A DNA stretch of 64,000 bases. It comes from Malachius bipustulatus (lineage: Eukaryota > Arthropoda > Insecta > Coleoptera > Melyridae). Below the pieces are notes generated by a model. That model ran no database searches. It was given only the letters and a program-made list of their open reading frames with translations, and was not told the DNA's origin. The stretch is from NCBI GenBank assembly GCA_910589415.1, contig OU342630.1:7874001-7938000 (forward strand), written 5' to 3'. Positions 1 to 61,080 of this stretch are shown piece by piece. The translations under genes were made by a program, and so were the position numbers. The first letter of the stretch is position 1; each line of letters begins with the position of its first letter.

Positions 1-190
1 ATATTCACCTCTGATCATGGATTCTCTCACGTGACTCTCACGACAGTCACGCATTTCCCGTGATGACTGAATGATACTAGGTCAGAGGTCTAAGGGTTCT
101 TTGAGCGAACAGGGATGAAAGATAAGATATAACGCTGTAAACGCAAAAGAGAAAACGGTAGACGTCCCAGTAGGTTTTTATATCATATAC

Positions 191-432
191 TACGGAAGCG
201 CTGAGCTGCCATCGTTTTCCGTAAAAACTTTTTTTATATAATTTACAGTTCCAACTGTAAATTTACAGTTCAAAGTGTAAATTTACAGTTCAAACTGTAA
301 ATTTACAGTTCAAACTGTAAATTTACAGTTTGAACTGTAAATTTACACTTTGAACTGTAAATTTACAGTTGGAATTGTAAATTATATAAAAAAAGTTTTT
401 ACGGAAAACGATGGCAGCTCAGCGCTTCCGTA
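191..432. mobile_element. Foldback MITE with 20-bp palindromic tandem repeats
   Basis: The ends are an inverted repeat of about 50 bp, starting TACGGAAGCGCTGAGCTGCC on the left with its complement ending at 432. The element is flanked by a perfect 6-bp direct repeat, ATATAC (185-190 and 433-438), which I read as the target-site duplication. The middle is a tandem array of self-complementary units. There is no coding capacity, so it must be mobilised in trans. The architecture (TACG-type TIR, 20-bp palindromic units, 6-bp duplication) matches the much larger element at 37960-42476. Confidence 0.85.
241..380. repeat. Seven 20-bp palindromic tandem units
   Basis: Seven consecutive 20-bp units of the form ATTTACAGTTCAAACTGTAA fill the centre of the foldback MITE. 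Each unit is nearly its own reverse complement, and the outermost units differ by one or two bases that are mirrored on the other side (CCAACT left, GGAATT right). The whole array can therefore fold as one long hairpin. Confidence 0.93.
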
Positions 433-438
433 ATATAC

Positions 439-2529: not shown

Positions 2530-3553
2530 TTTTTTTTATTGAAAATGCACATGCACTGCAGGGAAATCCCTATGACGCTCTGGGAGCGGTGCATGAGCAG
2601 AGATATCGATTCACGTTGGCCTTGAATCTCTGTAGGTTGTATACTTCGGGAAACACGCCCTTTGGAATGCTATTCCAAAGTGATGCGGTTCTATACATAA
2701 AAAAAGTCTGAAATAGGGTGGTACGAGGTGTAACGAACTGAACCTGATACGAATGAGCGTCTGCGGCTCGACGTGTATTTCTGCCCGGTCTTGTTCTTGG
2801 TGGGATCAAGCGGGCCACGTCTTTTGAACACCTTCCATTAAAATATCTGTAAAACAGACTCAGGTCAGCTACTCTTCTTCGATGTTCGAGAGTGTCTAAA
2901 TTTTTTGTCAAATCTGGGTCCCCAAGATTTGATGTGGTGTATAAAATTTCTTCGTGCGGAAGAGTGTTCCAAGTTTTTGAGAAGCACTCTTCGCCAGACC
3001 TGCAACATGATCATGCCAAGACATGTTCGCTCCAAGGCTCACTCCAAGTAAACGAAGAGATGACACTGGGGTAAGAGAGTGTCCCGCCATCATCATACCT
3101 GGCTCCAAAACGTTGGTCTTTTTGGAGAAGATGGCTGCTTGGGTTTTTCCAGCATTAAATTGGACTTGGTTTCTATCGCCCCAAGTTAGAATGTCTTGCA
3201 AGTCATTGTTAAGTATGGCAACTTCTTGCTCCCTGCGAGTCTGTGCGTCGATGGCAGATGTTCGCGCATCTAACGTATAAGAAGATATGAGGGTACTGTC
3301 GTCGGCAAAACTGTATATTGGATTTTTTGTTGTTTCAAGCAAGTCGTTTATAAATATTAGAAAGAGAGTCGGAGATAAAATGGATCCCTGAGGCACACCG
3401 GCATTGATGGAAAGTGAGGAGATCACCAGTTGACCTCTGTTTGCGGAATCCGTATTGGCGGTCGCTGATTACATTAGCTCCTTCCAAGTATTTTAAAAGA
3501 TGTTGGTTAATAGCTTTCTCCATAATCTTGGATATTACTGAAAGCAGTGCCAC
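2530..3553 (-). pseudogene. Internally deleted jockey/CR1-type non-LTR retrotransposon, 3' part
   Basis: Read on the minus strand from 3553, the order is an RT fingers block (SKIMEKAINQHLLKYLE, then GFRKQRSTGDL), motif B (GVPQGSILSPTLFLIFINDL), motif C (YSFADDSTL), the thumb (LRLLGVSLGANMSWHDHV) and a C-terminal block (WNSIPKGVFPEVYNLQRFK). Two internal deletions are visible. Motif A is missing between STGDLL and SLSINAGVPQG. Sequence is also missing between YTPHQIL and LDTLEHRRR. An A-rich tail (T-run on plus) near 2530-2541 marks the 3' end. It is a dead copy, 5' truncated near 3560. Confidence 0.85.
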
Positions 3554-3716
3554 TGGTCGACATGATGATTATGGGAAATAATAATTATGTATATGAAAAA
3601 TATGCTATTATTAAATTAAAGAACTCGAAAATGGCACTAAGAGAGACAATCGATCGGCAATCAGCAATATCCTCTTTTTTTAATAATCGAAATTATAAAA
3701 CAATTGTTGTAGGTTT

Positions 3717-4997: not shown

Positions 4998-6260
4998 AGT
5001 CGTAAAAAGACATCCCTTCGATACAAAAAATTTCTAAGCCCACTAGATAGAATTTTCATAGTCAACTTATGTTCTTCTTATGGCCGCCAAATTGTTTTTT
5101 ATGTCGTTCGCGGTATGAATGAAATCACGGTAACAACAAAAAAAAAATTTCAAATAGTTTATTATTTTTTATTTTTTTTTTTAACTTTTTTCTGCGACGG
5201 GCTATAAGTTTGACCTTTTTCCCCGTTGACAGGTAGAAAAATGCCTCATTATATGAGCTGCATCTTATCGGGGAAATAAATGAATTAGCAGGGAAATACG
5301 AAAGTTACCTTATTATCCAAATGGCAATTATTAAGGGAATTTTCATAATAATCACTATCCATATTATTAAATTCACTCATCCAAAACTAACAAGAATCTT
5401 TGCCAAATTGTCTTCAATTTTAATTACATTAATATGACGTTTATGTAATAATTAAATCGTTTCGTTACCCAGGTAACGTCAATTACGATAAAAGACAGTT
5501 TCAAAATCCAAGTTTAACATAAATCATTTTTCCGACATAATTTTGAGTTATCTAACTACGTTTTTCGACATTCTAACACTGATATTTCTTCTCGCAGAAA
5601 AAAATTGTATATTATACACACGAGAAAAAACTGCGATTTTAGCTCTCGAAGTGTTTGTCCCCTCCGCTAAACGCGTCGGGGACGAAATCACATCTCGAGC
5701 TAAAATCTATCACTTTTTTCTCTTGTATAATAAATAACTATTTTTAAGCGAATTACAGCAATATTAAGTAGTCATATTACTTGCCCTATGATTTTTTAAT
5801 TTGTCAATGATATTCGGTATAAAAAGATGACTTAAAAAAAAACCATGCAGGAATAAAATTTCTGAAAATTTCTTTCACGAATGCTAGTAATGCTTCGTTA
5901 GGTGGATTTATTTTATACCATTCAACATAGAAAAAAACAATATGGCTGCCACAAGAAAAAGAGAAGTTGACTATAAAAACTATGGCATCTAGTCTGCTTA
6001 GAAAATTTTTGTTAAATTAGAAAATGACTTATGTAAACCTACAAAAAATAGTTTATTAATTTCTAATAAGTGATAAAAAGATATGGACAAAATAAGAAAT
6101 CTCGATTTTTTTAGTTTTCAGGATAATTCAGCAACAACTGAAGTTGTCCTAAATTTTGTTTCAGACTTTTATTAAGCATAAAATTGCGCAAATTTTCACC
6201 AATTTAATCGACTCTGTATCTCCTATAGTTTAGAAGATCCTAAAGGTGAGCCATTGGTAT
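4985..6260. mobile_element. Copy of the palindromic G-family repeat, interrupted
   Basis: Sequence at 4990-5150 (CTTATGGCCGCC, then ATGTCGTTCG) and at 5920-6250 (aagatatggacaaaataag, then the AACAACTGAAG block) matches the two arms of the palindromic element at 15844-17754, and also copies at 37253-42717 and 60660-61080. An unrelated repeat (about 5160-5750) sits between the arms. It is non-coding. Confidence 0.6.
5160..5750. repeat. Dispersed repeat, inverted copy at 56941-57555
   Basis: The block containing AGGTAGAAAAATGCCTCATT and the GCTCTCGAAGTGTTTGTCCC segment recurs, reverse-complemented, at about 56941-57555. Its right end (5590-5735) is itself a hairpin: GATTTTAGCTCTCGA pairs with TCGAGCTAAAATC. 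There is no open frame of note. Confidence 0.7.
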
Positions 6261-7830: not shown

Positions 7831-7834
7831 GATA

Positions 7835-9025
7835 TACACCGTGTTTTATATTAAGTCGGCACTATTGCTAACTTCGTTATTATTTAACCTAGAAAGTCGG
7901 TTAAATTAGCAAACTAGTAGTATTTTTGCCGCTGAATAAAATGGCGAAAGCAAAAAAACAATTGAACCTCGCGTTTTTGAGATATTTAAAAAAATTTAAT
8001 TTTTTTAATGGAACACCCTGTATATTTTTAGATGGATCGGTTGCAAATTTTTTTTAAAGGAAAAAGTCTTTATGCACTATGATCCTAAAATAATAAATTC
8101 ATTAATTATTCATTATTTTATTACTCCCAAAGTAGGCTGCGACAATTATTGTAATTTAGTGTACCTACGTAATGTAAGGTAAAAAAATTATGTCGTCCTC
8201 AATAGTGTATTTTTCAATAAAAAAATACACTAAAAATAAGAGTTGTTACCTTGAAAAGGATTTAATTTTACATAAACAAATAACAGAACTTGTTTGTGTG
8301 TACAATTTTATTATTTTAGGATCATAGTGCATAGAGACTTTTTCCTTTAAAAAAAATTTTGCAACCGATCCATCTAAAAATATACAGGGCGTTCCATTAA
8401 AAAATATCCATTTTTTTTAAATATATCGAAAACGCGATGTTCAATTGTTTTCCTGTTTTCATCGTTTTATTCAAGAGAAAAAATACTACTAGTTTGCTAA
8501 TTTAACCGACTTTCTAGCTCAAATAACGAAGTTAGCAATAGTGCCGACTTAATTTAAAACACAGACAAGTTCTGTTATTTGTTTATTTAAAATTAAATCC
8601 TTTTCAATATAACAACTCCTTTTTTTGTGTATTGTTTTATTGAAAAATACACTATTGAGGACGATATATTTTTTTACCTTACATTACGTAGGTAGGTACA
8701 CTAAATTACATTAATTGTCGCAGCCTACTTTGGGAGTAATAAAATAATGAATAATTAATGAATTTATTATTTTAGGATCATAGTGCATAGAGACTTTTTC
8801 CTTTAAAAAAAATTTGCAACCGATCCATCCAAAAATATATAGGGTGTTCTATTAAAAAAGTTACATTTTTAAAAATATCTCGAAAACGCGATGTTCAATT
8901 GTTTTTCTGCTTTCGCCATTTTATTCAAGAGAAAAAATACTACTAGTTTGCTAATTTAACCGACTTTCTAGGTTAAATAATAACGAAGTTAGCAATAGTG
9001 CCGACTTAATATAAAACACGGTGTA
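7835..9025. mobile_element. Palindromic TIR element with an extra internal arm
   Basis: The arms start TACACCGTGTTTTATATTAA on the left and end in the complement at 9025, with a probable TA target duplication. Arm 7835-8290 pairs with about 8556-9025 over roughly 470 bp. Between them lies a third, partial copy (about 8300-8560) of the outer half of the arm, in the same orientation as the right arm and with its own end at AAAACACAGACAAG. It is non-coding and Tc1/mariner-like only by its TA target. Confidence 0.8.
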
Positions 9026-9057
9026 TAGACTATATGTAGATATGTAGACTATAGATA

Positions 9058-15843: not shown

Positions 15844-17754
15844 TACATGGTGGGAAACTTTTGTACTACCCATCATTGGGATCTCGTAAGCGGTAAGAGA
15901 TACGCAGGGTCGGTTAAATTAGAGGAAAGTTGCACTATTTTCTGTTGAATATGATTCTGAAAAAAATTTAGGATATTTTCAGTCGTTGCTGAAATATCCT
16001 GAAAAAACTGAACTCTCGAGATTTTTTATTCTACCCATATCTTTTTTAGAATTGAAAATTATTAAATTATTTTTTGTAAGCTCGCATAAATCGCCAAGAG
16101 CTATGCATCTGACGTTTCAAAGATTTTCAAGACCGACTAGATTCCAGACTTTTCCTAGCCAACTTTTGTTTTTCTTATGGCCGCCATATTGTTTTCTTAT
16201 GTCGTTCAGTATAAAAAAAATCAAGGAAACCAATAATTAATAATAATCAAAAAGAAATTTCATAAATTTTATTGTTACTTTTCGAAAGAAAAAGGTAACT
16301 TTTTATACCGAATGTCATATAAAAATAAAAAGACAATAATGCAAGTAATATGACTTTATATTTACTCAATTGGATGAAGAAAATTTTTTAATTTTTTTTA
16401 ATATTGTTAATTTTTGGTTTTCCGGATTTTTTTTTTGGATTTTTTTTATACCGAAGGACATAAAAAATCAATATGGCGGCCGTAAGAAGAACAAATTCTG
16501 GGATCTAGACGGCTTTGGAAATTTTTGAAATGTTAGACGGGTAGCTCTTGATGACTTATGCAAGCCTACTAAAAAAAATTTAATAATTTTCAATAATATA
16601 TACAGGGTGTATTGTAACGTCCGCATAATATTAGCACCACGTGATTCTACATCAAAAACAGAACATAAAGTTTTAATACTGTTTAGCTCTTAGACCTCAA
16701 ATAACGAAGTTATCGACCATTGTAGTTTAAATTTGAAGTTTTTTAATACTCAAAAATATTGCTTAATATTATTTAAAAACTCTTAAGTAAGAAGTAAAAT
16801 AGCCAAATTATCCAAAATTTTAGATTTTTTTTTGTAAAAATGGTTTTAACTGACATTTCAAAACTAGGAATTATTTGATTTCCTGAGTTCCAATACTTCC
16901 AATCAATATTGCAACTGCGCGTTTTAATTGTTGAATAAAAAATTGAAAAAATAAAAAATCTTAAAAAAAATTGCAACATTGACACGTCGCAGCATGACAT
17001 TTGTCTTGTTGCACCTTTTTTCGATTACATAGCAACGGCACACTATACCAGTGAGGTGACTTCACGTCTAATAAGTTATCTTAATTTTATACCAGCGCCA
17101 GTGTTGCAAAATTTAAGAACGTTAAATTGTCCATATCTTAAAATCTGTGTACATCAAGAAAAAACTGTTGAGGACTTTTTTGTTCTGTTTTTGATGTAGA
17201 ATCGCGTGGTGCTAATATTATGCGGACGTTACAATACACCCTGTATATATTCGTTTGAAATTACAAATTGCAGTCTTACGATTAACATGTTGTTTAGTTT
17301 AATTAATTACATATGATTGGTTTCGTCGATCATGGGGAAAAGAACGATCTGTAGGATATTCTGATGTGATGTTGACATCATGGTGAAGCATTTGCTTTGA
17401 GAGATATAGTCTAGGGAAAACCCCATTAAAAAACCTAGACACACCATCCTGTTGAGATTGGTTTGAAGTATTCCAATCACTTTGCAGCATCCGTCTGAGG
17501 TTATCTGGCTGTTAATGTAGATTTTGTTTACAAGAGCTTCAAATAATAATGAAAAAGATGGATAAAATAAAAAATCTCGAGATTTCAGGTTTTTTCTAGG
17601 ATATTTCAGCAACGACTGAAAATATCCTTAATTTTTTTCAGAATCTTATTCAGCATAAAATAGTGTGCAATTATTCTCTAAGTTAACCAACCCTGTATCT
17701 CTTGCCGCTTACGAGATCCCAATGATGGGTGGTACAAAAATTTTCCACCCTGTA
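15844..17754. mobile_element. Palindromic G-family element, interrupted
   Basis: The left arm starts TACATGGTGGGAAACTTTTG and the right arm ends in the matching complement (TTTTCCACCCTGTA). Both arms contain CCATCATTGGGATCTCGTAA and the GATATTTTCAGTCGTTGCTG block. The centre is interrupted by another palindromic element (16601-17245) and by about 285 bp of unassigned sequence (17246-17530). It is non-coding, and partial copies of the family occur elsewhere in the window. Confidence 0.8.
16601..17245. mobile_element. TIR element nested in the G-family element
   Basis: TACAGGGTGTATTGTAACGT and the following ~45 bp at the left end are mirrored at the right end (ACGTTACAATACACCCTGTA). TA dinucleotides flank it, consistent with a TA target. 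At 645 bp with no coding capacity it is a MITE. The inserted position is inside the centre of the older 15844-17754 palindrome, so it is the younger element. Confidence 0.85.
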
Positions 17755-20187: not shown

Positions 20188-23088
20188 TCAAAACTGGTTC
20201 GAACAATATTCATAAAATTCTTGCAATGTGTATGGTTCACATTGTATTAAAAAAGGTTTCAGAGAACTTTTAAAAGGTTTCACATCGGTTATGTCTTTGA
20301 AAACCCTCGGTAAAGAATTATAGATTTTTATACATGAATAAAATGCATTTTTCTCAACTAAAGTGAGTGAATGTATAGGATAGAGATATGCTCTCTCTCT
20401 GGTCCGGTAATTATGTGACTGTAAGTAGCTCTCAAAATATTCAGCATGCTTATAAACAAAAACTGCACATTCCAAGATATACAGCCCCACAAATGTCAGA
20501 ATATTATTATCCCGAAAAATGCCTCTACATGAGGACCGGTACGGCCTATGAAAGATAATCCGAATAACAATCTTTTGTAGTGTAAAAATTTTCTTATATT
20601 CTATGCTCTTTCCCCACAAAATCACTCCGTATCTGAGAAGTGATTCAAAGTTGCTATGATATAGTACCATCATAGTATCCGCTCCCAGAACGCGAGAGAC
20701 AATTCTAAGGCTGTAAATGGTAGAATTTAACCTCCCAGACAGTACTTCAATATGGCGGCACCAATTTAGATTTTTATCAACCTATATACCCAGAAACCTA
20801 CAGTCGTTGCTAATACGAAGAGAGAATTGATTTAAAACATCTATTTCATTTGGTGTCTCTATTGTTGATCGATTAGTTTTAAAGATAATACACTCAGTCT
20901 TCTGCCTATTGATTAGCAATCTGTTTTGACTTAACCAGTTCTCAAGGCTTTCAAAAGTCTGGTTTGCCAATGTTACAAACTCATTGACATTGTCGGCACT
21001 GAACAGGATATTCGTATCATCAGCATAATTAAAGAGTTTAAGTGTATCCCCTTGGAATCCCAATGGCATATCATTCATGTAAACAATAAATAAGAGCGGT
21101 CCCAGTATACTTCCCTGAGGGACTCCCACTTTCTGATCGACGGATCGTGATAGCCCTTCGTGACCATTTATCTCCACCTTTACTATATTTTTTCTTTCAG
21201 TTAGGTAGCTTTTTAACCACCTTAAGGGAGTACCACGCACTCCACAGCTATCCATTTTGTTAAGCAAGATTTCGTGATCAACACAATCAAAAGCTCTGGA
21301 AAGATCAAAGAAAAGAGCGCAGGGCAATTTTCTCCCCTCCAGAACCTCTACAATTTTCTGCACGAACTCAAAGCATAAAGTGGTGGTATTTTTATCCTTT
21401 ATGAAGCCATGTTGACATGCATTGAGAACATTGAATTTCTTTAAAAAATCTGTTAGCCTATCGCAATATGCCCGTTCAAATATTTTGCTAAAAGATGTCA
21501 GCAGGCTCACTGGACGATAGTTTCCCAAGTCAGTGGTATTACCCTTTTTGTGAACTGGTTTGATTATTGCTGTCTTGAGTTGATTTGGAAAGATTCCATA
21601 CTCAAAAGAATTATTTATTACAAAACATAGTGGTCGTGAAATCAGTTGTATTACCTCCTTGACTATAGTTGTTGGTACCTGATCATGACCACTTGATAAG
21701 ACATTCTTGAACCTCCCAACAATGCCTTCGATCTCAGCCTCAGTTACAGGCCTGAGAAATATTGAACGGTCACACTTGATCAAGTCACTCCGGGAGCGAA
21801 CATCATGCTGACAGTCATCGGTGCTCTTGTTTTCTTGGCATTTAGAAAAGTATTCACTAAATTCCTCAGCGAGTTTGCTGGGGTCCTTAGATGATAACAT
21901 ATTCTGTCTATTTTTGCTCATAGAGCTTATACTCTTGACTAAATTCCAAACTGCCTTGCTTTTATTGTCTGAATAGGTAACTTTATTATGATAAATTTCT
22001 CGCCTAATAACCTGAATTTCATTATTGTATCTTATTTTCAGTGCTTCGTAAGCTCTCTTATATGTAGGGTTATATTTGGCAACTAAGAAAGTTTTATCTA
22101 ACAGATCTTTGAGGAATAAAATCCGAGGATTTCTATACACCGAAAGACATGCACCCGTACGTCTACTAACGAATCGTTCCGGGAAACTGTTATTAAAATG
22201 GGATAAGAAAACCTTAGTAAAGCAGTCCCACTGTCTGTCTACGTCAAACTTCGGGATCTCTAGCAAGCAGTCCCAAGTCTCATTGCAAAGACATTCCCAA
22301 AACAACTTTCGATTATTATCGTTAAAGTGCCGCATCTTCCTCTTAGTACAGGTTTGACGTCCCTTCAAGCAAGCAGAAAAGAGAATGGCTCTGTGATCGG
22401 AGATGTGCAGTTCAAGTACTCTGGATGTAAAGTCATCAAAATTTGAGATCACATTGTCCAAGCAAGACTCCCCGCGAGTAGGTTGCCGTACTGAACAAGT
22501 CACCCCAAATCCCTCAATCAGAGAGAGAAAAATATCTCGATCCTTACTCTGTTTTAAAATATCAAAATTAAAATCTCCCGTTACGACATACAAAAAACCC
22601 GACATACAAAGTTTATCGAACAACATATAAAGCTGTTGGAAAAATAATCCTGCTGAGGCATTTGTAAGCGGTGACCTATACACAGACACCACAGTAATTT
22701 TGTAACCAGAGATCGTCACTTCCAATGCTGAGCACTCAAAAACGCCCTCGATGCTCAGTGCAGACAAGTCTACCCTGGACTCGCAAACGACATTCTCAGA
22801 GCAGTATAGTGCAGAGCCCCCATGTTGCAGTGGTTCACGACAGTACGCGGATACAAGACGAAAACCAGGAAGTTTATAAGCTGCAAGCTGATCGCGATCC
22901 TTCCAATGCTCAGTAACAGACACAATCTGACATTCATGTTGCAAGACACCAATCATCAGTCTGTCAAGGCTGTTGCCTATTGATTGTAAATTTTGATAAA
23001 GCAAATTTACCTTTATAGAATCTACTCCACTGCCTTTGCCTTTCCTATGTGGGATAAAAAATTGTTCAGTCGTGTTCCAGTGGGCCAC
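20188..23088 (-). pseudogene. ORF2: endonuclease and reverse transcriptase with one internal stop
   Basis: One continuous frame of 966 codons is interrupted only by a TAG at 20782-20784. The N-terminal third is an apurinic-like endonuclease (LLYQNLQSIGN, VSVTEHW, VVSVYRSP, VTGDFNFD, CLDNVISN, HISDHRAI). Next comes the reverse transcriptase: KPVHKKGNTTDLGNYRPVS, motif A LFFDLSRAFDCVDHE, motif B GVPQGSILGPLLFIVYMND, and motif C FNYADDTN, which carries the catalytic aspartates. The thumb and C-terminus continue past the stop. The enzyme nicks chromosomal DNA and copies element RNA there. ORF2 starts 67 bp inside ORF1 in another frame. All catalytic motifs are present, so the stop may be the only inactivating lesion, or a sequencing difference. 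Confidence 0.9.
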
Positions 23089-23873
23089 AAAGTAGGATTC
23101 TTCAAATTTTCAAGCTGCTCAGCAGGAACAGAAATTTTAAATGATGAATATTCATTCGGATATTTGGAATCCATTCTTGTACATCTGAAATTCTCGAATT
23201 TATTTTCCTGGAGATGCTTGCGCAAATCTTCCTCCTGTAGGCCAGGGTCCAACCTGTAGACATGAACATGGGCATACGGAATAACCCCTTTGATGGCGAG
23301 ATTACTAGCTGCTCCAACTACGGTATTTAGTTTTCTTCCATGCTTCCTAGTAACGACGGTTTTAAAGTTATCATTTTTTGATTTATCTTCTATGGGATTA
23401 GAATCATTGTTGATCCTGCGATTATTTACGTCGGCAATTCTTATTTTCCTTGTGAAATCTTTCGTTGGTGACGAATTAATAAATTGCGGTGAATTTATAT
23501 TTATTGTTTGTTTTTTCTCAGTCCGCCTGGTGCTATCTACAGCTGATATCAATATATTATCGGGTGATTCGCGCAAGGAAACATCGGTACCATTATTTGC
23601 AATAGAATTATTAAAAGGAAAATTATTGCATTTTATTTTAGGCACAGCAACCCTATTCAATAAATTGCCAGGGTTTTTATCCAGCAATCTAATTAGATCT
23701 ATGTTGGTGGTTTTCAAATTCACTACTTCAGTCTTCAATTCATCGATTTGCCGTCTAAGCGACTCGGTCTTGGAATCCAATAAATTATTAACTATTTCAG
23801 CAAATTCACTACTTTTCAAGAAATTTATTACTTGTTCACCAATGACACTAGTTGACCTAGTTTCTAGCCCCAT
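23022..23873 (-). CDS. ORF1 nucleic-acid-binding protein of the non-LTR element
   Basis: An intact 283-codon frame starts at the ATG complement at 23871-23873, just upstream of and overlapping ORF2. Residues about 10-65 are rich in heptad-spaced L/I/V (VNNLLDSKTESLRRQIDELK, then VVNLKTT), consistent with a short coiled coil for multimerisation. A basic, asparagine-rich linker follows. The C-terminal about 85 residues (VHVYRLDPGLQEEDLRKHLQ to LWPTGTRLNNFL) resemble the RNA-binding C-terminal domain common in arthropod ORF1 proteins. No CCHC zinc knuckle is visible. The expected role is to coat element RNA in the ribonucleoprotein. Function is inferred from position and weak similarity. Confidence 0.78.
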   Translation of the reverse strand: MGLETRSTSVIGEQVINFLKSSEFAEIVNNLLDSKTESLRRQIDELKTEVVNLKTTNIDLIRLLDKNPGNLLNRVAVPKIKCNNFPFNNSIANNGTDVSLRESPDNILISAVDSTRRTEKKQTININSPQFINSSPTKDFTRKIRIADVNNRRINNDSNPIEDKSKNDNFKTVVTRKHGRKLNTVVGAASNLAIKGVIPYAHVHVYRLDPGLQEEDLRKHLQENKFENFRCTRMDSKYPNEYSSFKISVPAEQLENLKNPTLWPTGTRLNNFLSHIGKAKAVE

Positions 23874-23984
23874 GGTAACGTAAGGATATGTTATATCGAA
23901 ATATTACTTACTTTGATTTACTTAAAAAGTGATCACACTCACACCAGCTAGGTATCCGCTCAAGCGAGCGGCCGAAGCACGAAT

Positions 23985-28254: not shown

Positions 28255-28893
28255 GCTCTCTATGGCGGAAACAACGAAAAATCCTACGACGAATTTCGTT
28301 TCAACTTTTTCTCCCGCATGGGACAAAAGACAAAATCGGATCTTACTTCTTTACCACCATCAGAGTGAGCTGCTGAGCAGCATTCATTTCGAACTTGTTA
28401 CCAAATCCAAACATGGCTTGGCAATATCTTGGAATCGGAAACCTGGGGCTGGAAGAGACATAAATGTGGATTAGAACCCGTAATGAGCACTAAAGATCCA
28501 ATTCCATCTTCACATCTCAAGGTTATTTCGTGTGCATGCACAAAAGATTGCGGGGTAGCTTGTGGCTGCAGAAAAGCAGGACTGAAATGGTCTGCAGTTT
28601 GCAAGAACTGCTCAGGTCAAAGTTGTTTAAACGTCGCGGAAATCACTGACAACAGCAGCGATGATGAAAACATAATATATTTGCTAGCCACGGTTCCCCT
28701 GTCTCGCTATTATAGCCGAGCTAAGAATTCAGACAAAATTTATTGTGGAATAGTAAACAAAGAAAATGAGGAAGAACCTGGCCTATCGAAACTACTCGAA
28801 ACTACTCGAAACGTGCTAGAAAAAAAAAATGAAATTATAATCTTGACTCTTGTAAAAGCACAGTATTGCCTTGATTTAACAAAAACATACTAA
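28255..28893 (+). pseudogene. CXC cysteine-rich protein, C-terminal part with one stop
   Basis: A single frame runs 28255-28893 with one TGA at 28366-28368. It reads ALYGGN, SDLTSLPPSE, stop, AAEQHSFRTCYQIQTWLGN and ETWGWK. A cysteine cluster follows (SCACTKDCGVACGCRKAGL, then VCKNCSGQSCLN) that resembles a tesmin/TSO1-like CXC zinc-binding domain. I recall this layout from the C-terminus of uncharacterised multicopy arthropod proteins. The N-terminal part is missing or shifted. One expected cysteine appears replaced by tryptophan (GLKWS where relatives have a Cys). Its place between long TIRs suggests it travelled with a transposon. Molecular function is unknown. Confidence 0.7.
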
Positions 28894-30601: not shown

Positions 30602-30604
30602 TAA

Positions 30605-31325
30605 GCCCTCTTTCACACCTACGGTTTTTAACCGTGGCCGTGTACGGCTACGGAGCCGTGCTTAGCCCTCTTTCACACCTACGGTTTTTAACCGTGGCCG
30701 TGTACGGCTACGGAGCCGTGCTTAATCGAAACACGTTATCATAAATGCAAGCTTTCACACAAGACGGTTTGTTGCCGGAGCCGTACACGGCTGCCGTCGC
30801 AGCACGGCTAGTTGACTGCTACGGCACGGTACCGGAGCCGCTTACGGCAACATAAAAACACACAAGTGCATACAAGCATGCACACGTGCCGTGTGTTGAT
30901 ACTGTTTCGTACGATACGATATCGTACGGACGTTAATAACATTTTCTAAATTTACGGAAATTATAATAACGAAATTATGGTTATTGAATTAGATCATGAA
31001 CTACTAATTACACTAGTTGAAGATCCTTTCGTATCTCGCGAAACAATGTTGCAAATTCCCCGATCGACTGTCTGCTTTCAAGAAGTGGATCAATACAAAA
31101 TCTTCTTGCTTTTCGCGACTGTCTACGACGATGCCAAAGCATTATTAACAATATGCGTCTTTTTCGTTCATCCATCGTAGGTGCAACTGACAAAAATACT
31201 TAAAAAAAACATCCAGTGTCGCGTTGTCTACTAAAAACCGTGTGCTGTGTGAACACAAGTCAAATTAAATCACGGCACGGCTACGGCACGGTTACCGTTA
31301 GAAAACCGTATGTGTGAAAGAGGGC
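30605..31325. mobile_element. PIF/Harbinger-type non-autonomous element
   Basis: The TIRs start GCCCTCTTTCACACCTACGG and end with the complement, flanked by TAA on both sides (30602-30604 and 31326-31328), the usual Harbinger target. A short minus-strand remnant of a Harbinger-type transposase lies inside. The left 60 bp is duplicated in tandem (30605-30664 and 30665-30724), apparently without a mismatch. The subterminal region is full of short ACGGC/GCCGT motifs. Confidence 0.85.
31008..31193 (-). pseudogene. Harbinger transposase N-terminal remnant
   Basis: The minus strand encodes RRRQSRKARRFCIDPLLESR, then SIGEFATLFREIRKD. This resembles the N-terminal block of PIF/Harbinger nucleases, which typically read like RRxWVxPLLxxRxxxGEF. 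The DDE catalytic domain is absent, so the element is a deletion derivative that would need a helper. The overlapping plus-strand frame is taken as a shadow. Confidence 0.65.
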
Positions 31326-37044: not shown

Positions 37045-38000
37045 TAACACGCTAACATATTGACGATGCCTCATAATGTAGTCATAATTAAATTTTTGGC
37101 CGTTTCAACTAAGAATGCATAGACTGTACAATTATTTCCATTTCATAAGTTCTTTTTATTAACCTTAAATTTATTGATTTCTCAGAACTCTACGAGACAG
37201 TCTCATTGCCATTATATCTAAAAAATACAACTTTTAATTTATTACGTATATATACAGCATGTCCGTTTTTAAAGCTCTTAGGTATGGGTATTCCGGTTAT
37301 CTTGAGAGATACGAATTAAAAAAAAATGGGTCAAAGCTGCACAATTTTAACTTTACTTATTAGGAATTTGAAAAAAAAAACTTCGAGCGTTGCTGAAATA
37401 TCTTGAAAAAAACTAAAAAATTGAGATTTCTTATTTTTGGCATATCTTTTTTACTCATTCAAATTAATGAATAATTTATAATTTTTTGCAGGCTCGCATA
37501 AGTTGTATCTATCTCGCATAATAGCTATCTATCCGAAATTTCCAAAATTCCCAAAACCTACTTGATCCAGAGTTTTCAAGTTTGGTTTTTCTTACGGGAG
37601 CGATATTATTTTGAATATTATTCGGTATAATAAAAACATGGAAACCAAAAATTGATGACATTGAATTTTTTAAATTTTATTCTTAAGAAAAAACTTTTTT
37701 CTCAGAATTTGTTGAATATACTGCTCATAACTCCTTGCCTTGTTTATTTTTAATTTTCTATAATATTCGGTGTAAAAAGTTGTCTTATTTTTAAAAACGA
37801 AGAAAAAAAAATCTTCTTTTTCACATCGGACGACATAGAAAAATAATATGATGGCCATAAAAAAAAAACAAAATGACTATGAAAATTCTGGGATCTAGTT
37901 GACTTTGAATATTTTTTGTTAAATGTTAAATGGATAGCTCTCGACGACTTATGCAAACCTACGAAGGCGTAGAAGCGCCACACGAGTTTTATTTTTAAAA

Positions 38001-38160
38001 TTCCGAGTTTAAACTCGGAATTCCGACTTTAAACTCGGAATTCCGAGTTCAAACTAAGAATTCCGACTTTAAACTCGGAATTCCGAGTTCAAACTCGGAA
38101 TTCCGACTTTAAACTAGGAATTCCGACTTTAAACTCGGAATTCCGAGTTTAAACTCGGAA
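38001..38160. repeat. Eight 20-bp palindromic units (left array)
   Basis: Eight units of the form TTCCGAGTTTAAACTCGGAA. Each is self-complementary, several have GACTTT in place of GAGTTT, and the unit junction creates GGAATTCC. The register is exact over all eight. Confidence 0.95.
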
Positions 38161-39587
38161 TTCCGAAGAGGGCGGGGTCTAGCCTATTATTTGCCGTCTG
38201 CGTGGCGATACAAAAATTGCCGCCCCTCACCCCCCTCTTAAGAAGAAATGTCTACCAATGGGAGGGCAAAAACCAATTTTTTGTAGGTAAAAATTAAACA
38301 CCAATAGAAACGTTATTTTAGATTAGATAAGTTCTGCTGCACCGCGGGGCTTATTGGTGCGAAATATATCCCCCGAAAATCAGGGGGGTTCGAGAAATTA
38401 TTTTGAAAAAACAAGTGCGAAAATGTTAATCACACTAAGCAATAACAACATTCATACTGGTAGATTTTAGCGTTACCGGACAATATATGTATAGGGTGTT
38501 CCACCAGCAGACCGACATAGCTTAAGGGTTGGTGTAGGTTTTCAAGATAATGATTCGGGATCTGGTTTTGAAATTTTTCTGAGGCCCTTCGTTTCGATGT
38601 TACAGGGTGATTCATGCATTTTGCCGAAATTTTTGATGAGCAGTATCTTTTGACGGAATTGATAGAATTTATGGAAATTTGGTAGATATGCTCTGCTAAT
38701 GATACTTAATACCTCGCATTTTTCGTCGATTCGAAAACTGCAGGGCCGTAGTTAATTTTTTAGGTCTCTATCGGTTTTGTCAAAAAGTTCACCCTGCATG
38801 TATTTTTTCAAAGTTTAGTTTAAACCATTTTCTAAAACTACATTAAAAATGCTACAATTGCGATAAAAATAATTACTGACACAATTACACTGATCGAGAA
38901 CAAAATAAAAACTTTTAGATTTTTCAGCATTTCAATGCATGTTTGTTAATGCATTTTCGAAAAATCAAATATTATTTCTTAAAACTTGCATAAATATTTT
39001 GTAGTTATTTCAAATAAACTTGCTTGATCTGCAGATTTAGTCAAGATTAGTGAAAGTTATAGATTTTTTTAGAGCTAAAAATAAGTTTTAATTTAACAAG
39101 AAAAAACTCAAGTGTTATTAAGAACACCAACTGAACGAAGATATGGTAATTTTAATGACAAACAAACACATAAGCGTATAAGTAACACAATTTAGCCCAT
39201 TAACACATAAACAAATAAGTATATAAGCGAAACAGAAAGAAAAATATCAACACAAATTTTGGGTAGAAAAACTGCAATTCAGTGCAGATAATGTTCAAAC
39301 AGGCCACCATACTTTTTTGATATTTTTATTTCTGTTTCGCTTATTTGTTTATGTGCTAAAATTGTATTTTTTATAAGCTTATGTGTTATTATGGGTTATC
39401 ATCAAAATTACCATTTCTTCTTTTAGCTGTTTTTCTTATTAAAACTTATTTTTAGCTCGAAAAAATCTAGAGTGGTTCCTAATCTTGGCTAAATCTGTAG
39501 ATCAAGCAAATTTATTCGAAATAGCAACAAAATATATAAGTTTTAAAAAATCACATTTGGGTTTTCGAAAATTAGTAACAACCATAA

Positions 39588-41461
39588 TTTTTTTTTTATT
39601 TTTTATTTAGATAATAATGCTTCGACATCACAGGTCATTAGCATGTCACTACATGTTATTACTTATGTATGAGATTATACAGATGTTAGAAAATACAATA
39701 TACAGATATAATAAAAATACAGAAATAATATGCAGATATACAGATATTTTAAGTATGCCTTGATTATGTGATAGGTAGGAGCAAAGTTAGAGAGACTTGT
39801 AAATCTATATTGTTCGTGTAAGTTCCAAGAAGCGTCGTCACTACAGTAGTTCATACAGTCCAACATTTTTGAAAAAGGTTAGCGTTTTCGTTGCTTCGGA
39901 TGGGGTGTTTCCTAATGCTACTGAAGGGTCGCAGCTAACTTGGCATCTTTTTCTTTCTAAGTTGTACCGTTGACAGTCGCTAAGAATATGAGTTACTGTG
40001 AGTCTGCAATTACAAGTTTCACATGAGGGTGGGTTTTCGTTGCTGAGAAGGAAGCTATGTGTGAGCCGGGTGTGTTGAAGGCGTAGTCGGGATAGCTTTA
40101 TTTGGTCTTTCCTATTGTTTGGGTTGGTCATTCCTTCGAATCGCCTATTTTGGATGGTTCGTAGTTTGGAGGTGTTATTTACCCAGAGCTCCTGTAGAAT
40201 ATCCATGTGCATTCTTCTGATTCGAGATTTGATATCGTCTGGAGTGTGGAAGGTGGTTTCTGGGGTCGTATCCGCTGATGCTTCGCGTGCTGCTTTATCT
40301 GCTTTCTCATTGCCGGGAATTCCTATGTGTGATGGTACAAACACGAAACTGACATGGATTTGTTTTTCCTGTAGCATTTGTAGAATATTTTGAATTTGAT
40401 GTGCAATTGGGTTAGTTGTGTATAGTTTCGCAACGGTATGTAGGGAGCTGATTGAGTCAGTGCATATCACATAGCTTTCCTCTTTTCCGGAAGTAGAAAG
40501 GACGTATACCAATGCTTGGTGTATGGCGTATAATTCGCCTGTGAAAACACTCGTGTCTTTTGGCAGGCGGAATTTCATAACTGAGTTTGGCGTTACTATT
40601 GCGGACCCTACGTGGCCATTTTGGGGGTTCAGTGAGGCATCTGTGTAGATAGGTGTAGCGTAGCGGTACTCACTTTGGATGAGGTTTGTAAAGGTGGTCC
40701 GTATCAATATAGGGTTGGTGTTAAGTTTATCATATTGTAGAAGACATTCATTGCATTTGGCATTGGTCATCCAAGGAGAAGTTTTGTGATCTATTGCCGA
40801 TAAAATCTTCGGAAATCTATACTCTATTCGATTCAGGTATTTGTTGACTCTCTCATATAGTGGCGGTAGAGTTCTGGAGTTGCTTTCATAGATGTTTCTG
40901 AATCTGTTGGATATTGTAATTCCGTAGTTCATGCTAGAAGGTGTTGCCAGTACTTTCACAGCGTAGTGTAGGGTTATCACAGGAAGTCTATCATATATGC
41001 TAGAGATTCCTAATAGAGCATATAAGCTTGCTGTGGGAGTTGTAGGAAAGGCTCCTGTAATTATGCGTAAGGCTTGATTTTCTATGACCTCTAGAGTTTT
41101 GAAATAGGTCGGCCTGGCTGCTGAAAAGGCTATAAGACCATAATCGATTTTTGCTCTTATCATACAGTGGTATACTACCAGTAGGCTTCTAATGTCGGCT
41201 CCCCAGTTATGATGTGACAGTACTTTTAATAGATTAATGACGTTGTTGCACTTATATTTTAGAGCTTGAAAATGTAGTTTCCAGTTGAGTCGTTGGTCGA
41301 AGATGACTCCTAAGTACTTGATGTGGTCGACAAAGGTTAGTGGCGTGCTGAATAGGGTGATGTTGGGTAAAATGTATCTGGGTCTTGATGATTTTTGAAA
41401 CAGTATACATTTGGTTTTTTCACATGAAAATCTGAAACCTGAATTCTGGCTCCAAGTATTC
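39588..41461 (-). mobile_element. Level 4: 5'-truncated RNase H-bearing non-LTR retrotransposon
   Basis: The poly-A tail appears as a T run at 39588. The element is flanked by CAACCATAA on both sides (39579-39587 and 41462-41470), a 9-bp target duplication. It is truncated within the reverse transcriptase. Since it sits inside level 3, it is the youngest insertion of the nest. Confidence 0.88.
39841..41457 (-). CDS. RT thumb, RNase H and zinc-finger end of an I-clade-like retrotransposon (partial)
   Basis: The frame is open from the truncation point to the stop. It starts in the RT connection (GFRFSCEKTKCILFQ, IKYLGVIFDQRLNW), passes WGADIRSLL and DYGLIAF, then enters RNase H. Visible catalytic blocks are PIYTDASLNP with the first Asp, TGELYAIHQAL with Glu, VICTDSISSL with Asp, and VPSHIGIPGNEKADKAARE with the last Asp. 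A C-terminal CCHC-like cluster follows (CETCNCRLTVTHILSDC). RNase H removes element RNA during reverse transcription. The clade (I or a relative) is inferred from having RNase H after RT. The frame is undamaged, which supports a recent insertion, but the protein lacks its endonuclease and RT palm. Confidence 0.9.
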   Translation of the reverse strand, partial: TWSQNSGFRFSCEKTKCILFQKSSRPRYILPNITLFSTPLTFVDHIKYLGVIFDQRLNWKLHFQALKYKCNNVINLLKVLSHHNWGADIRSLLVVYHCMIRAKIDYGLIAFSAARPTYFKTLEVIENQALRIITGAFPTTPTASLYALLGISSIYDRLPVITLHYAVKVLATPSSMNYGITISNRFRNIYESNSRTLPPLYERVNKYLNRIEYRFPKILSAIDHKTSPWMTNAKCNECLLQYDKLNTNPILIRTTFTNLIQSEYRYATPIYTDASLNPQNGHVGSAIVTPNSVMKFRLPKDTSVFTGELYAIHQALVYVLSTSGKEESYVICTDSISSLHTVAKLYTTNPIAHQIQNILQMLQEKQIHVSFVFVPSHIGIPGNEKADKAAREASADTTPETTFHTPDDIKSRIRRMHMDILQELWVNNTSKLRTIQNRRFEGMTNPNNRKDQIKLSRLRLQHTRLTHSFLLSNENPPSCETCNCRLTVTHILSDCQRYNLERKRCQVSCDPSVALGNTPSEATKTLTFFKNVGLYELL

Positions 41462-42235
41462 CAACCATAAATTGAAATTCTGAAAAAACTAAAAATTTTT
41501 CATATTCTTCTCAATTCAGTTTAATAGTGCAAAGTAATTTTTTACCGCAATTGTAGCATTTTTCATGTAGAAAATGGTACTACACTTTGAAGAAAATGCA
41601 TAATACAGGTGAACTTTTTAAGAAAACCGATAGAGACCTGAAAAATTAAGTACGGTCCTGCAGTTTTCGAATCGAAGAAAAATGCGAGGTATTAAGTGTC
41701 ATTAGCAGAGCATATCTACGAAATTTCATTAAATTCCATCCAATGGAAGGGTCTCAGAATAATTTTAATACCAGATCTCGAATCGACTTGAAAAACTTAT
41801 AATACCTACCTAAGCTATGTCGGTCTGCTGGTGAAACACCCTGTAGAGTTGAATGGAGTTACGTTAGAGCCAACATCTGGTCTCAATATGGTCAAAGCCT
41901 TCGTTATAAACTTTTATTATAAAACAAGCTGAATCGGGTTGTTCCGCGGTCAGAGCCATCCTAAGATATTCGGCGTCCGCAAAAGGGCGACTGGTAATTA
42001 TCCGCCCTTTTTCATAAGATAATACATAGGATGGCTATAATGCCGGGAACAAGCCAGTGACTATTGATGGATTTAAAATTTAGTGCAGTATGGATTCAGA
42101 ACTTAATACTATAAAGGTAATATTTTTTGTTATTGTTATGATTTATGATCGGATTTTTACTTCCGCCCGCCGCCCCTATGAACTTGCCGCCTGCGTGCGG
42201 GCCAATCATAGCACACCTGCTAGGCCCGCCCCTAA

Positions 42236-42435
42236 TTCCGAGCTTAATCTCGGAATTCCGACTTTAATCTCGGAATTCCGACTTTAATCTCGGAATTCCG
42301 ACTTTAATCTCGGAATTCCGACTTTAAACTCGGAATTCCGACTTTAAACTCGGAATTCCGAGTTCAAATTAAGAATTCCGACTTTAAACTCTGAATTCCG
42401 AGTTTAAAGTCGGAATTCCAAGTTTAAACTCGGAA
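42236..42435. repeat. Ten 20-bp palindromic units (right array)
   Basis: Ten units of the same 20-bp type as 38001-38160, in exact register. The innermost four carry TTAATCT in place of TTAAACT, a variant absent from the left array. Local unit duplication therefore happened after the two ends diverged. Confidence 0.95.
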
Positions 42436-42717
42436 TTTTAAAAATAAAACTCGTGTGGCGCTTCTACGCCTTCGTACAAACCTACGAAAATTATTAGTTA
42501 TTTTCTACTAATGAAAAGGATATGCTAAAAATAAGAAATCTCTATTTTTTAATTCTTCAGGATATTCCAGCAACGCCTGAAGTTTTCCTAATTTTTTTCC
42601 AGATTTATAATAAGGTTAAAATTGTGCAAATTTGCCCCAATTTAACCGACTTCATATATTATATATTTCAATATAACCGAGATCCTCATGCTTAAGCTCG
42701 AAAAACGGACACCTGTA

Positions 42718-60659: not shown

Positions 60660-61080
60660 TTGTTAAAAAAAAAAAATTTAAATTATTTTTAAATGTTATT
60701 AATTTTTGGTTTTCGTGATTTGTTTTATACCGAACGACATGAAAAAATATTTTGGCGGTCATAAGAAAAACAAAAGTTGGCTATGAACACTCTTGGATCT
60801 AGTCGGCTTTGAAAATGTTTGTATAATGTCGAATGAATAGGTTTTGACGACTGATGTAAACCTATAAAGATAATTTCCAATAATAAAAAAGATATGGGTA
60901 AAATAAGAAATTTTGTTTGGTCAGGTTTTTCAGGATATTTCAGCAAAGACCGAAAATATCTTAATTTTTTTACAGATTCTTATTAAGCATTCAATAGCGC
61001 AACTTTGCCCCAATTTAACTGAGTCCGTGTCTCTTCTAGTTTCCGAATTTGCACTCACCCTATACACACGTACTAGGGTT
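60660..61080 (-). repeat. Half of a G-family palindromic element
   Basis: Carries the TACCGAACGACATGAAAAAA, GATCTAGTCGGCTTTGAAAA and AGGATATTTCAGCAAAGACC blocks of one arm of the G family. The partner arm is missing. Confidence 0.65.

What the first reader, a model, noticed from the sequence alone, without database searches (positions are those of the whole stretch)
37960..42476. A foldback family with 20-bp palindromic unit arrays, TACG ends and 6-bp duplications
Two elements (191-432 and 37960-42476) differ 19-fold in size and in unit sequence but share a design: TIRs starting TACGGAAGCG or TACGAAGGCG, then tandem 20-bp self-complementary units in exact register, bounded by 6-bp direct repeats (ATATAC; CAAACC). 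A 6-bp duplication and arrayed palindromes do not match the common insect DNA transposon groups that I can name with confidence. The units could form cruciforms or long dsRNA, or act as multimeric transposase binding sites.
Basis: partly seen in the sequence, partly recalled or inferred. Interest (0 to 1): 0.75.

Follow-up and report, generated by a model that had tools for sequence, protein, structure and literature searches.

The report
Foldback transposons with phased repeat arrays
Two palindrome-filled DNA pieces in this insect-like genome are short members of a large jumping-gene family whose ends carry rows of 20-base repeats, and whose long members encode an integrase-type transposase and a ubiquitin-ligase-like protein.

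Summary
In detail: both elements have TACG...CGTA ends, 6-bp duplications and 20-bp, imperfectly palindromic units in register. In the rest of the genome (544 Mb) two end patterns have 255 and 239 matches, their reversed controls 0. Perfect 6-bp duplications flank 42 of 48 elements measured.

Long copies carry a spliced DDE transposase gene (PF24764, DD58D40E) and, converging on it, a HECT-like gene. Ends, duplication and transposase type fit the IS3EU/GingerRoot superfamily, so 'no known group' is wrong.

Five transposase lineages (51-63% identical) have arrays at their ends, all with a 20-bp period; unit sequences differ (B and C are close), and E units are not palindromic. Five of 13 transposase copies scanned, some of them fragments, showed no array. 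I read the arrays as phased, multimeric transposase-binding sites, as reported for Galileo; this is inference. The 84-bp array-less copy L015 is unique in the genome, but array-less L036 also has a perfect duplication.

A LINE trapped once in subfamily A was carried to 14 of the 26 A copies fetched.

The parts
185..190 (.). target duplication ATATAC, left copy of the small element
191..432 (.). small element, subfamily A, non-autonomous, 242 bp
242..381 (.). seven 20-bp units, TTTACAGTTCAAACTGTAAA type (two inverted 10-bp half-units)
433..438 (.). target duplication ATATAC, right copy
37954..37959 (.). target duplication CAAACC, left copy of the large element
37960..42476 (.). large element, subfamily C, non-autonomous, 4517 bp
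38001..38160 (.). left array, 8 units, TTCCGASTTTAAACTCGGAA type
42236..42435 (.). right array, 10 units
42477..42482 (.). target duplication CAAACC, right copy
38490..41845 (.). second, nested long-inverted-repeat unit inside the large element (arms 38490-38945 and 41462-41845, 79-83% alike)
39841..41499 (-). LINE-derived open frame, 552 aa, RNase H domain PF00075 (E 4.7e-14), passenger
37819..37959 (.). host repeat into which the large element inserted (left part; right part 42477-42651); uninterrupted matches across the junction at 5925-6213, 60723-61022, 15909-16218 and 16493-16591

Best explanation
Both elements are non-autonomous derivatives of IS3EU-type (IS3/IS481-like DDE) cut-and-paste transposons. 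An integrase-like transposase encoded by long relatives recognises the roughly 24-bp TACG tip together with the array behind it. The array is a row of units spaced 20 bp apart, two turns of DNA, so that several transposase molecules would sit in line on one face of the helix at each end, pair the two ends and integrate with a 6-bp stagger at a weakly symmetric, A/T-centred target. The unit sequence goes with the transposase lineage (B and C units are close, A, D and E differ) while the 20-bp spacing is kept. Shown: ends, duplications, empty sites, target symmetry, transposase genes next to matching ends and arrays, period. Inferred: that the transposase binds the units, that the phase matters, that A and C are moved by their own lineage's enzyme, and any role of the HECT-like protein.
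For: 42 of 48 elements have perfect 6-bp duplications: 37 of 43 (36 of the 37 sequences distinct), 2 of 2 for the third B copy and D (flanks), 3 of 3 for the E copies with both ends. Symmetric target profile around the duplication in the 37: none of 2000 samples of random window positions reaches it. One B copy (10,197 bp, C1:10006713-10016909, duplication AGGTAT) has an intact four-exon transposase frame of 392 aa, DD(58)D(40)E, PF24764 E 4e-33, with relatives in beetles, fish, molluscs, echinoderms and frogs; relatives score against IS481 (best 5.8e-11) and IS3 (9.3e-7) models. Transposases stand beside A-, B-, C-, D- and E-type ends and arrays: 8 of the 13 copies scanned. Period of 20 bp in all five of these lineages; 510 of 511 unit-to-unit steps in A, B and the window C copy are 20 bp. 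37 of 43 elements keep at least two units at both ends. The 84-bp array-less A copy has no second full-length match in the genome. Precedent for binding sites in terminal tandem repeats: Galileo, PMC3688188 (passages).
Against: No binding or transposition data. Two A copies without recognisable units have perfect duplications (L015, 84 bp; L036, 611 bp), so arrays may be dispensable, or were lost or decayed after insertion. Five of the 13 transposase copies scanned show no 20-bp array within 1.5 kb: lineage F (none in 3.8 kb upstream either), the two G copies (one flank reads N), a copy with several stops (L070) and a fragment (L071). The E units are not palindromic and the D units only in their core. 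Covariation inside units shows no excess of compensated pairs. Regular 20-bp spacing may partly reflect inheritance and homogenisation of tandem repeats. A and B/C targets differ in detail next to the duplication edge. For the A and C copies with transposase only one end was located.
Confidence: 0.67

Rival explanations
1. Arrays are functionless minisatellites: an internal repeat in the ancestral ends that expands and contracts by unequal exchange or slippage; only the TACG tip matters.
For: Unit number varies widely (0 to 21 per end); two array-less copies have perfect duplications (L015, L036); a period can simply be inherited with the array; some transposase copies show no array.
Against: Five lineages with 51-63% identical transposases keep a 20-bp period although the unit sequences of A, B/C, D and E differ; arrays start 42-54 bp from the tip at nearly all ends (exceptions 69, 71 and 412); of the six A copies under 250 bp, five keep at least one unit at both ends; the 84-bp copy has not multiplied.
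Confidence: 0.23
2. Arrays act through structure: cruciforms or hairpins (or long dsRNA from transcripts) promote excision, or silence or protect the element.
For: Units and whole elements are largely self-complementary; a 1.3-kb inverted duplication (97.4%) centred on an A copy (L050) suggests that such ends can seed palindromic rearrangement.
Against: The E array is not palindromic although it has the same period and place; palindromy in A, B and C breaks at pairs 7/14 and, in A and B, 10/11.
Confidence: 0.07
3. The elements are foldback elements of the Mutator (FB) or P (Galileo) superfamilies.
For: Long inverted repeats with internal tandem units and a variable middle, the classical foldback anatomy.
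Against: 6-bp duplications rather than 7-8 bp (Galileo, PMC4168063) or 8-10 bp (Tetris, PMC4079207); the transposase is an integrase-core PF24764 protein.
Confidence: 0.01
4. A LINE with inverted ends: the reverse transcriptase seen inside many A copies mobilises the element.
For: 14 of the 26 A copies examined contain the same LINE.
Against: The same LINE exists free with different 3' junctions (window 2531-3560 and L010); all 14 share one internal 3' junction and have perfect 6-bp duplications; the LINE frames are split in the seven copies whose frames I listed.
Confidence: 0.02

Closest known systems
IS3EU/GingerRoot superfamily (Repbase; PMC10045372 and PMC12730594, passages read)
   Same: TA..TA ends (TACGG..CCGTA in A and B fits TAYGG..CCRTA reported for fungal IS3EU), 6-bp duplications, IS3/IS481-like DDE transposase; TET-bearing fungal IS3EU also have a second gene in opposite orientation to the transposase (alpha-kinase there, HECT-like here).
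   Different: 20-bp phased arrays in the ends and the HECT-like gene; neither is mentioned in the IS3EU passages that I read. Open-library searches: 0 papers with IS3EU and HECT; 1 with IS3EU and foldback, where foldback stands in a cited title; 3 with IS3EU and palindrom-, of which PMC9587614 was seen only in the listing.
Galileo (P superfamily foldback; PMC3688188, PMC4168063, passages read)
   Same: Long ends with tandem repeats that contain extra transposase-binding sites, so it is the works-like analogue; symmetric target motif.
   Different: 7-8-bp duplications, THAP/P-type transposase; the one tandem-repeat unit length that I saw is about 140 bp (PMC4168063).
Foldback (FB) and Tetris of Drosophila (PMC4079207, passages read; FB details recalled)
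   Same: Inverted repeats with tandem units, variable middle.
   Different: Longer duplications and units (8-10 bp and about 220 bp for Tetris); no transposase known for Tetris; FB is Mutator-linked (recalled).
IS3EU-1_TC of Tribolium castaneum (named in PMC5844308, passages read)
   Same: IS3EU in a beetle; similar to part of a dispersed repeat.

Membership tests
IS3EU/GingerRoot | 6-bp target duplication | tested here: met
   42 of 48 perfect; misses L009, L023, L026, L037 (2 mismatches), L046 (6-bp repeat with 2 extra bases on one side), L047 (1 mismatch)
IS3EU/GingerRoot | TA..TA termini | tested here: met
   TACG..CGTA at both ends in A, B, D and E copies and in the window C copy; A/B copies were picked by these ends, D and E were found by their transposase
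IS3EU/GingerRoot | DDE transposase of the IS3/IS481 type without HHCC | tested here: met
   PF24764 E 4e-33, rve 1.4e-4 (below its cut-off) and no other Pfam domain; IS481 model E 3.1e-4 for an exon of this genome's B copy, 5.8e-11 for relative P0010, all far below the models' curated cut-offs
IS3EU/GingerRoot | transposase groups with known IS3EU proteins in a tree | not testable with these tools
   Repbase sequences not held
Polinton/Maverick | 6-bp duplication with protein-primed DNA polymerase and capsid-type genes, 15-20 kb (recalled) | tested here: not met
   The 10.2-kb B copy has six open frames of 110 aa or more; five were scanned, only integrase core and HECT pass cut-offs; the sixth is array translation
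Ginger1/Ginger2 | 4- or 4-5-bp duplication (PMC10045372) | tested here: not met
   6 bp
Foldback/Mutator | Mutator transposase (recalled) and 8-10-bp duplication | tested here: not met
Galileo/P | 7-8-bp duplication, THAP transposase | tested here: not met

The most novel reading that the evidence does not exclude
In this animal clade of IS3EU transposons the transposase lineages have evolved their own units while the two-turn spacing is fixed, so the ends are a phased scaffold for a transposase filament; and a HECT-type ubiquitin ligase with the catalytic TC motif is a standing second gene of the clade that serves transposition or evasion of host control.
Probability: 0.4. Interest if true: 0.7.

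Novelty: new variant of a known kind. Interest (0 to 1): 0.52.

Why it matters
Foldback ends have been linked mostly to Mutator elements, with P-type exceptions (PMC4079207, passages); here the same anatomy arises in an integrase-type superfamily, with several lineages side by side in one genome that keep a 20-bp period while unit sequences change. That makes the old question of what foldback arrays do testable by swapping arrays between lineages. The paired HECT-like gene, which has relatives with consecutive locus tags beside a PF24764 transposase in Photinus pyralis, would be an unusual accessory gene for a cut-and-paste transposon.

Tried and rejected
The bare 10-mer TACGGAAGCG is no better than its reversed control by count (231+218 against 221+257); only head-to-head pairing and longer patterns are informative. 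Covariation inside units: observed complementarity did not exceed that expected from column composition at most pairs, and fell below it at the central pair in A, so no compensatory change is shown. The near-absence of odd spacings in arrays (1 of 511 steps) against 1.26 gap openings per kb in the LINE passenger was considered as evidence of constraint but is confounded by homogenisation and by how arrays were delimited, so it carries little weight. The best-rotation palindrome score is a weak measure: it gives 0.90 for A, 0.70 for B, 1.00 for C, 0.60 (20-bp unit) or 0.80 (40-bp unit) for D, 0.30-0.40 for E, and up to 0.88 for unrelated short repeats, so palindromy of B rests and that of D on the CCAATATATTGG core seen by eye. 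Lineage F: no TACG end by the motifs tried and no 20-bp period in 3.8 kb upstream. Lineage G: the two copies are 99.6% alike from L079:882, but one flank reads N there, so its end is unknown. The right end of the C copy with transposase (C16, left end 2856660) was not met up to 2870000, and the left end of the A copy (C4, right end 18879428) not down to 18866500, with an unread gap at 18875525-18876521. The fourth E copy (C16) has one end match only. These three copies are not in the count of 48. Structure prediction was not used. No PDB sequence relative of the transposase at E <= 1. The DNA searches of the genome score only the best 40 candidates. tRNA scan of the window: none.

Full report
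Observation. The two elements are as described. The small one (191-432) and the large one (37960-42476) begin and end with TACG...CGTA, are flanked by ATATAC and CAAACC, and hold 20-bp units in register. The units are best read as two inverted 10-bp halves, roughly TT[CT][AC][CG]A[GC]TTN, so that a half-unit comes every 10 bp in alternating orientation; they are imperfect palindromes with regular mismatches at pair 7/14 and, in A and B, at 10/11 (187 units of subfamily A, 166 of B, 18 of the window C copy). The large element sits in a dispersed repeat; its joined flanks align across the junction to four uninterrupted places in the window, so CAAACC is a true insertion duplication and the TACGAA that follows it belongs to the target.

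Genome family. The window lies in a held assembly of 544 Mb in 52 contigs. The pattern TACGRARGCGYWGARSKKCC has 123+132 matches and TACGAAGGCGTAGAAGYGCC 114+125, against 0+0 for both reversed controls; at least two ends match both patterns. Only the first 100 places of each are listed (contigs C1-C3). I fetched 41 head-to-head pairs of ends less than 15 kb apart, picked by eye from those lists: 24, 15 more and 2. No pair from the C list was fetched. With the two window elements that makes 43 (26 A, 16 B, 1 C). Of these, 37 have a perfect 6-bp duplication, 36 of the sequences being distinct (per batch 17 of 20, 4 of 4, 14 of 17, 2 of 2 in the window). Repeats of up to 12 bp were looked for in the 41, and none was longer than 6. 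The six misses: L009 (centre of an inverted duplication), L023, L026, L037 (two mismatches), L047 (one mismatch), L046 (ACATAG on both sides with two extra bases on one). Later additions: third B copy AACAAG and D copy GAATAC, three E copies CAAAAA, CATAAC, CATGCG: 42 of 48 in all. The 37 sites share a symmetric profile, with C almost absent two bases outside the first base of the duplication (1 of 74 after counting both strands) and A/T at its centre; none of 2000 samples of random window positions reached the summed information. A (21 sites) and B/C (16) share these two features but differ in the favoured bases at the duplication edge.

Transposase. Two B copies of 10,197 and 12,774 bp carry on the minus strand a four-exon gene with GT-AG introns. 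In the shorter copy the spliced frame is intact, 392 aa, D138, D197, E238 (DD58D40E); the longer copy has an early stop. Pfam gives integrase core PF24764 (E 4e-33) and rve (1.4e-4, below its cut-off). 868 relatives at E <= 0.001, of which 120 are listed, include beetles (Phaedon, Brassicogethes, Photinus), fish, molluscs, echinoderms and frogs. Relatives match IS481 (best 5.8e-11) and IS3 (9.3e-7) transposase models, far below the curated cut-offs but above chance. Published passages describe IS3EU as TA..TA-ended with usually 6-bp duplications, and TET-bearing fungal IS3EU ends as TAYGG..CCRTA (PMC10045372, PMC12730594). I therefore file the family as IS3EU/GingerRoot; the tree that would settle it could not be made.

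Several lineages, one period. The transposase search of the genome gave 34 matches. Besides three full B copies there are lineages A, C, D, E and F, all 51-63% identical to one another and to B, and a distant G, about 32% from B. I scanned 17 of the loci, which stand for 13 copies, for arrays within 1.5 kb. Eight have one: the exact C end and C units (L053), a B copy (L054), the A end and a 21-unit A array (L062), a D end TACGAAAGCGCCTAGGTGTCACAC with an array of 40-bp repeats (2 x 20) around CCAATATATTGG (L061), and four E copies with an AAATCTGGCAGTGCGACTTT array of about 6 to 31 units (L058, L059, L060, L063), whose end TACGATGGCTCAGAAGGGACATG was read. Five show none: F (L057), L070 (several stops), L071 (a fragment), and the two G copies L079 and L081. 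Self-match at a 20-base lag is 0.95, 0.97, 0.95, 0.78 and 0.86 for A, B, C, D and E, against 0.54 or less at all other lags tested except 40. A, B and C units are imperfect palindromes, D units have a palindromic core, E units are not palindromic (best-rotation score 0.30-0.40). The D copy (9558 bp) and E copies have arrays at both ends. E has 8 matches to its exact 23-base end in the genome, all at copies with transposase, so no short E derivative was found with that pattern.

A second gene. A HECT-like gene (PF00632, E 2.3e-8) lies on the other strand, converging on the transposase, at loci of all six lineages A-F (tblastn against 21 loci). The TC motif is visible in A, B, C, E and F; the A match is only 29 aa (E 8e-5), and in D only the N-terminal part was found. 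I found no paper with IS3EU and HECT and none with HECT, DNA transposon, ubiquitin ligase, transposase and terminal inverted repeats together, in the open library only.

What the arrays do. 37 of 43 elements keep at least two units at both ends, starting 42-54 bp from the tip with three exceptions (69, 71, 412). Of the six A copies under 250 bp, five keep at least one unit at both ends; the sixth (L015, 84 bp) has none, has a perfect duplication, and has no other full-length match in the genome (40 of 133 candidates scored, best first), as expected if it lost its array after landing and cannot move. L036 (611 bp) also lacks recognisable units and has a perfect duplication, which counts against an absolute requirement. 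Galileo provides the precedent: a footprint placed the first transposase-binding site near the end, and further sites were identified from its sequence in the terminal tandem repeats (PMC3688188, passages). Unit sequences that go with the transposase lineage, at a fixed two-turn spacing, are what phased binding by a lineage's own protein would give; functionless repeats could inherit the period but would have less reason to keep it in five lineages.

Passengers. 14 of 26 A copies hold the same LINE with one shared 3' junction, and all 14 have perfect, mutually distinct duplications. Free copies of the LINE end differently (window 2531-3560 minus strand; L010). So one LINE landed once in an A element and was then multiplied as cargo. 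The large window element likewise carries an inverted-repeat unit with a LINE fragment.

Verdict. A real, large and well-formed transposon family; its superfamily is known, while its end design and second gene were not met in the searches named above.

Noticed in passing
L011, L012, L014, L018, L019, L020, L028, L038, L042, L043, L044, L045, L051, L052: A LINE trapped in subfamily A was spread to 14 sites as cargo of a DNA transposon, with a single shared internal 3' junction.
   Followed up: yes
L050:776-2095 (C1:2191874-2193193): 1.3-kb inverted duplication (97.4%) centred on a subfamily A element, including its flanks, with no 6-bp duplication.
   Followed up: partly
L059 (right end at C1:5826237-5826592): The right end of an E element carries its terminal 355 bp twice in tandem, 100% identical; the 6-bp duplication lies outside the outer copy.
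   Followed up: partly
L048: A B element inserted within the end of a C-type element, duplication TAGAAG.
   Followed up: no
L036: A-ended, array-less 611-bp copy that contains a tRNA-like stretch (judged by eye).
   Followed up: no
window 2531-3560 (-): Free 5'-truncated copy of the LINE that is cargo in subfamily A.
   Followed up: yes
window 20188-23903 (-): Long LINE with a 293-aa first frame and a 775-aa frame with reverse transcriptase.
   Followed up: no
window 7833-9027: Self-complementary element 96.7% identical to part of the interior of the B element L022.
   Followed up: no
window 30604-30724: Perfect two-copy tandem repeat of 60 bp.
   Followed up: no
window 28369-28893 (+): Open frame with a cysteine-rich stretch (CACTKDCGVACGCRKAGLKWSAVCKNC), no Pfam match at E <= 0.001.
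   Followed up: no
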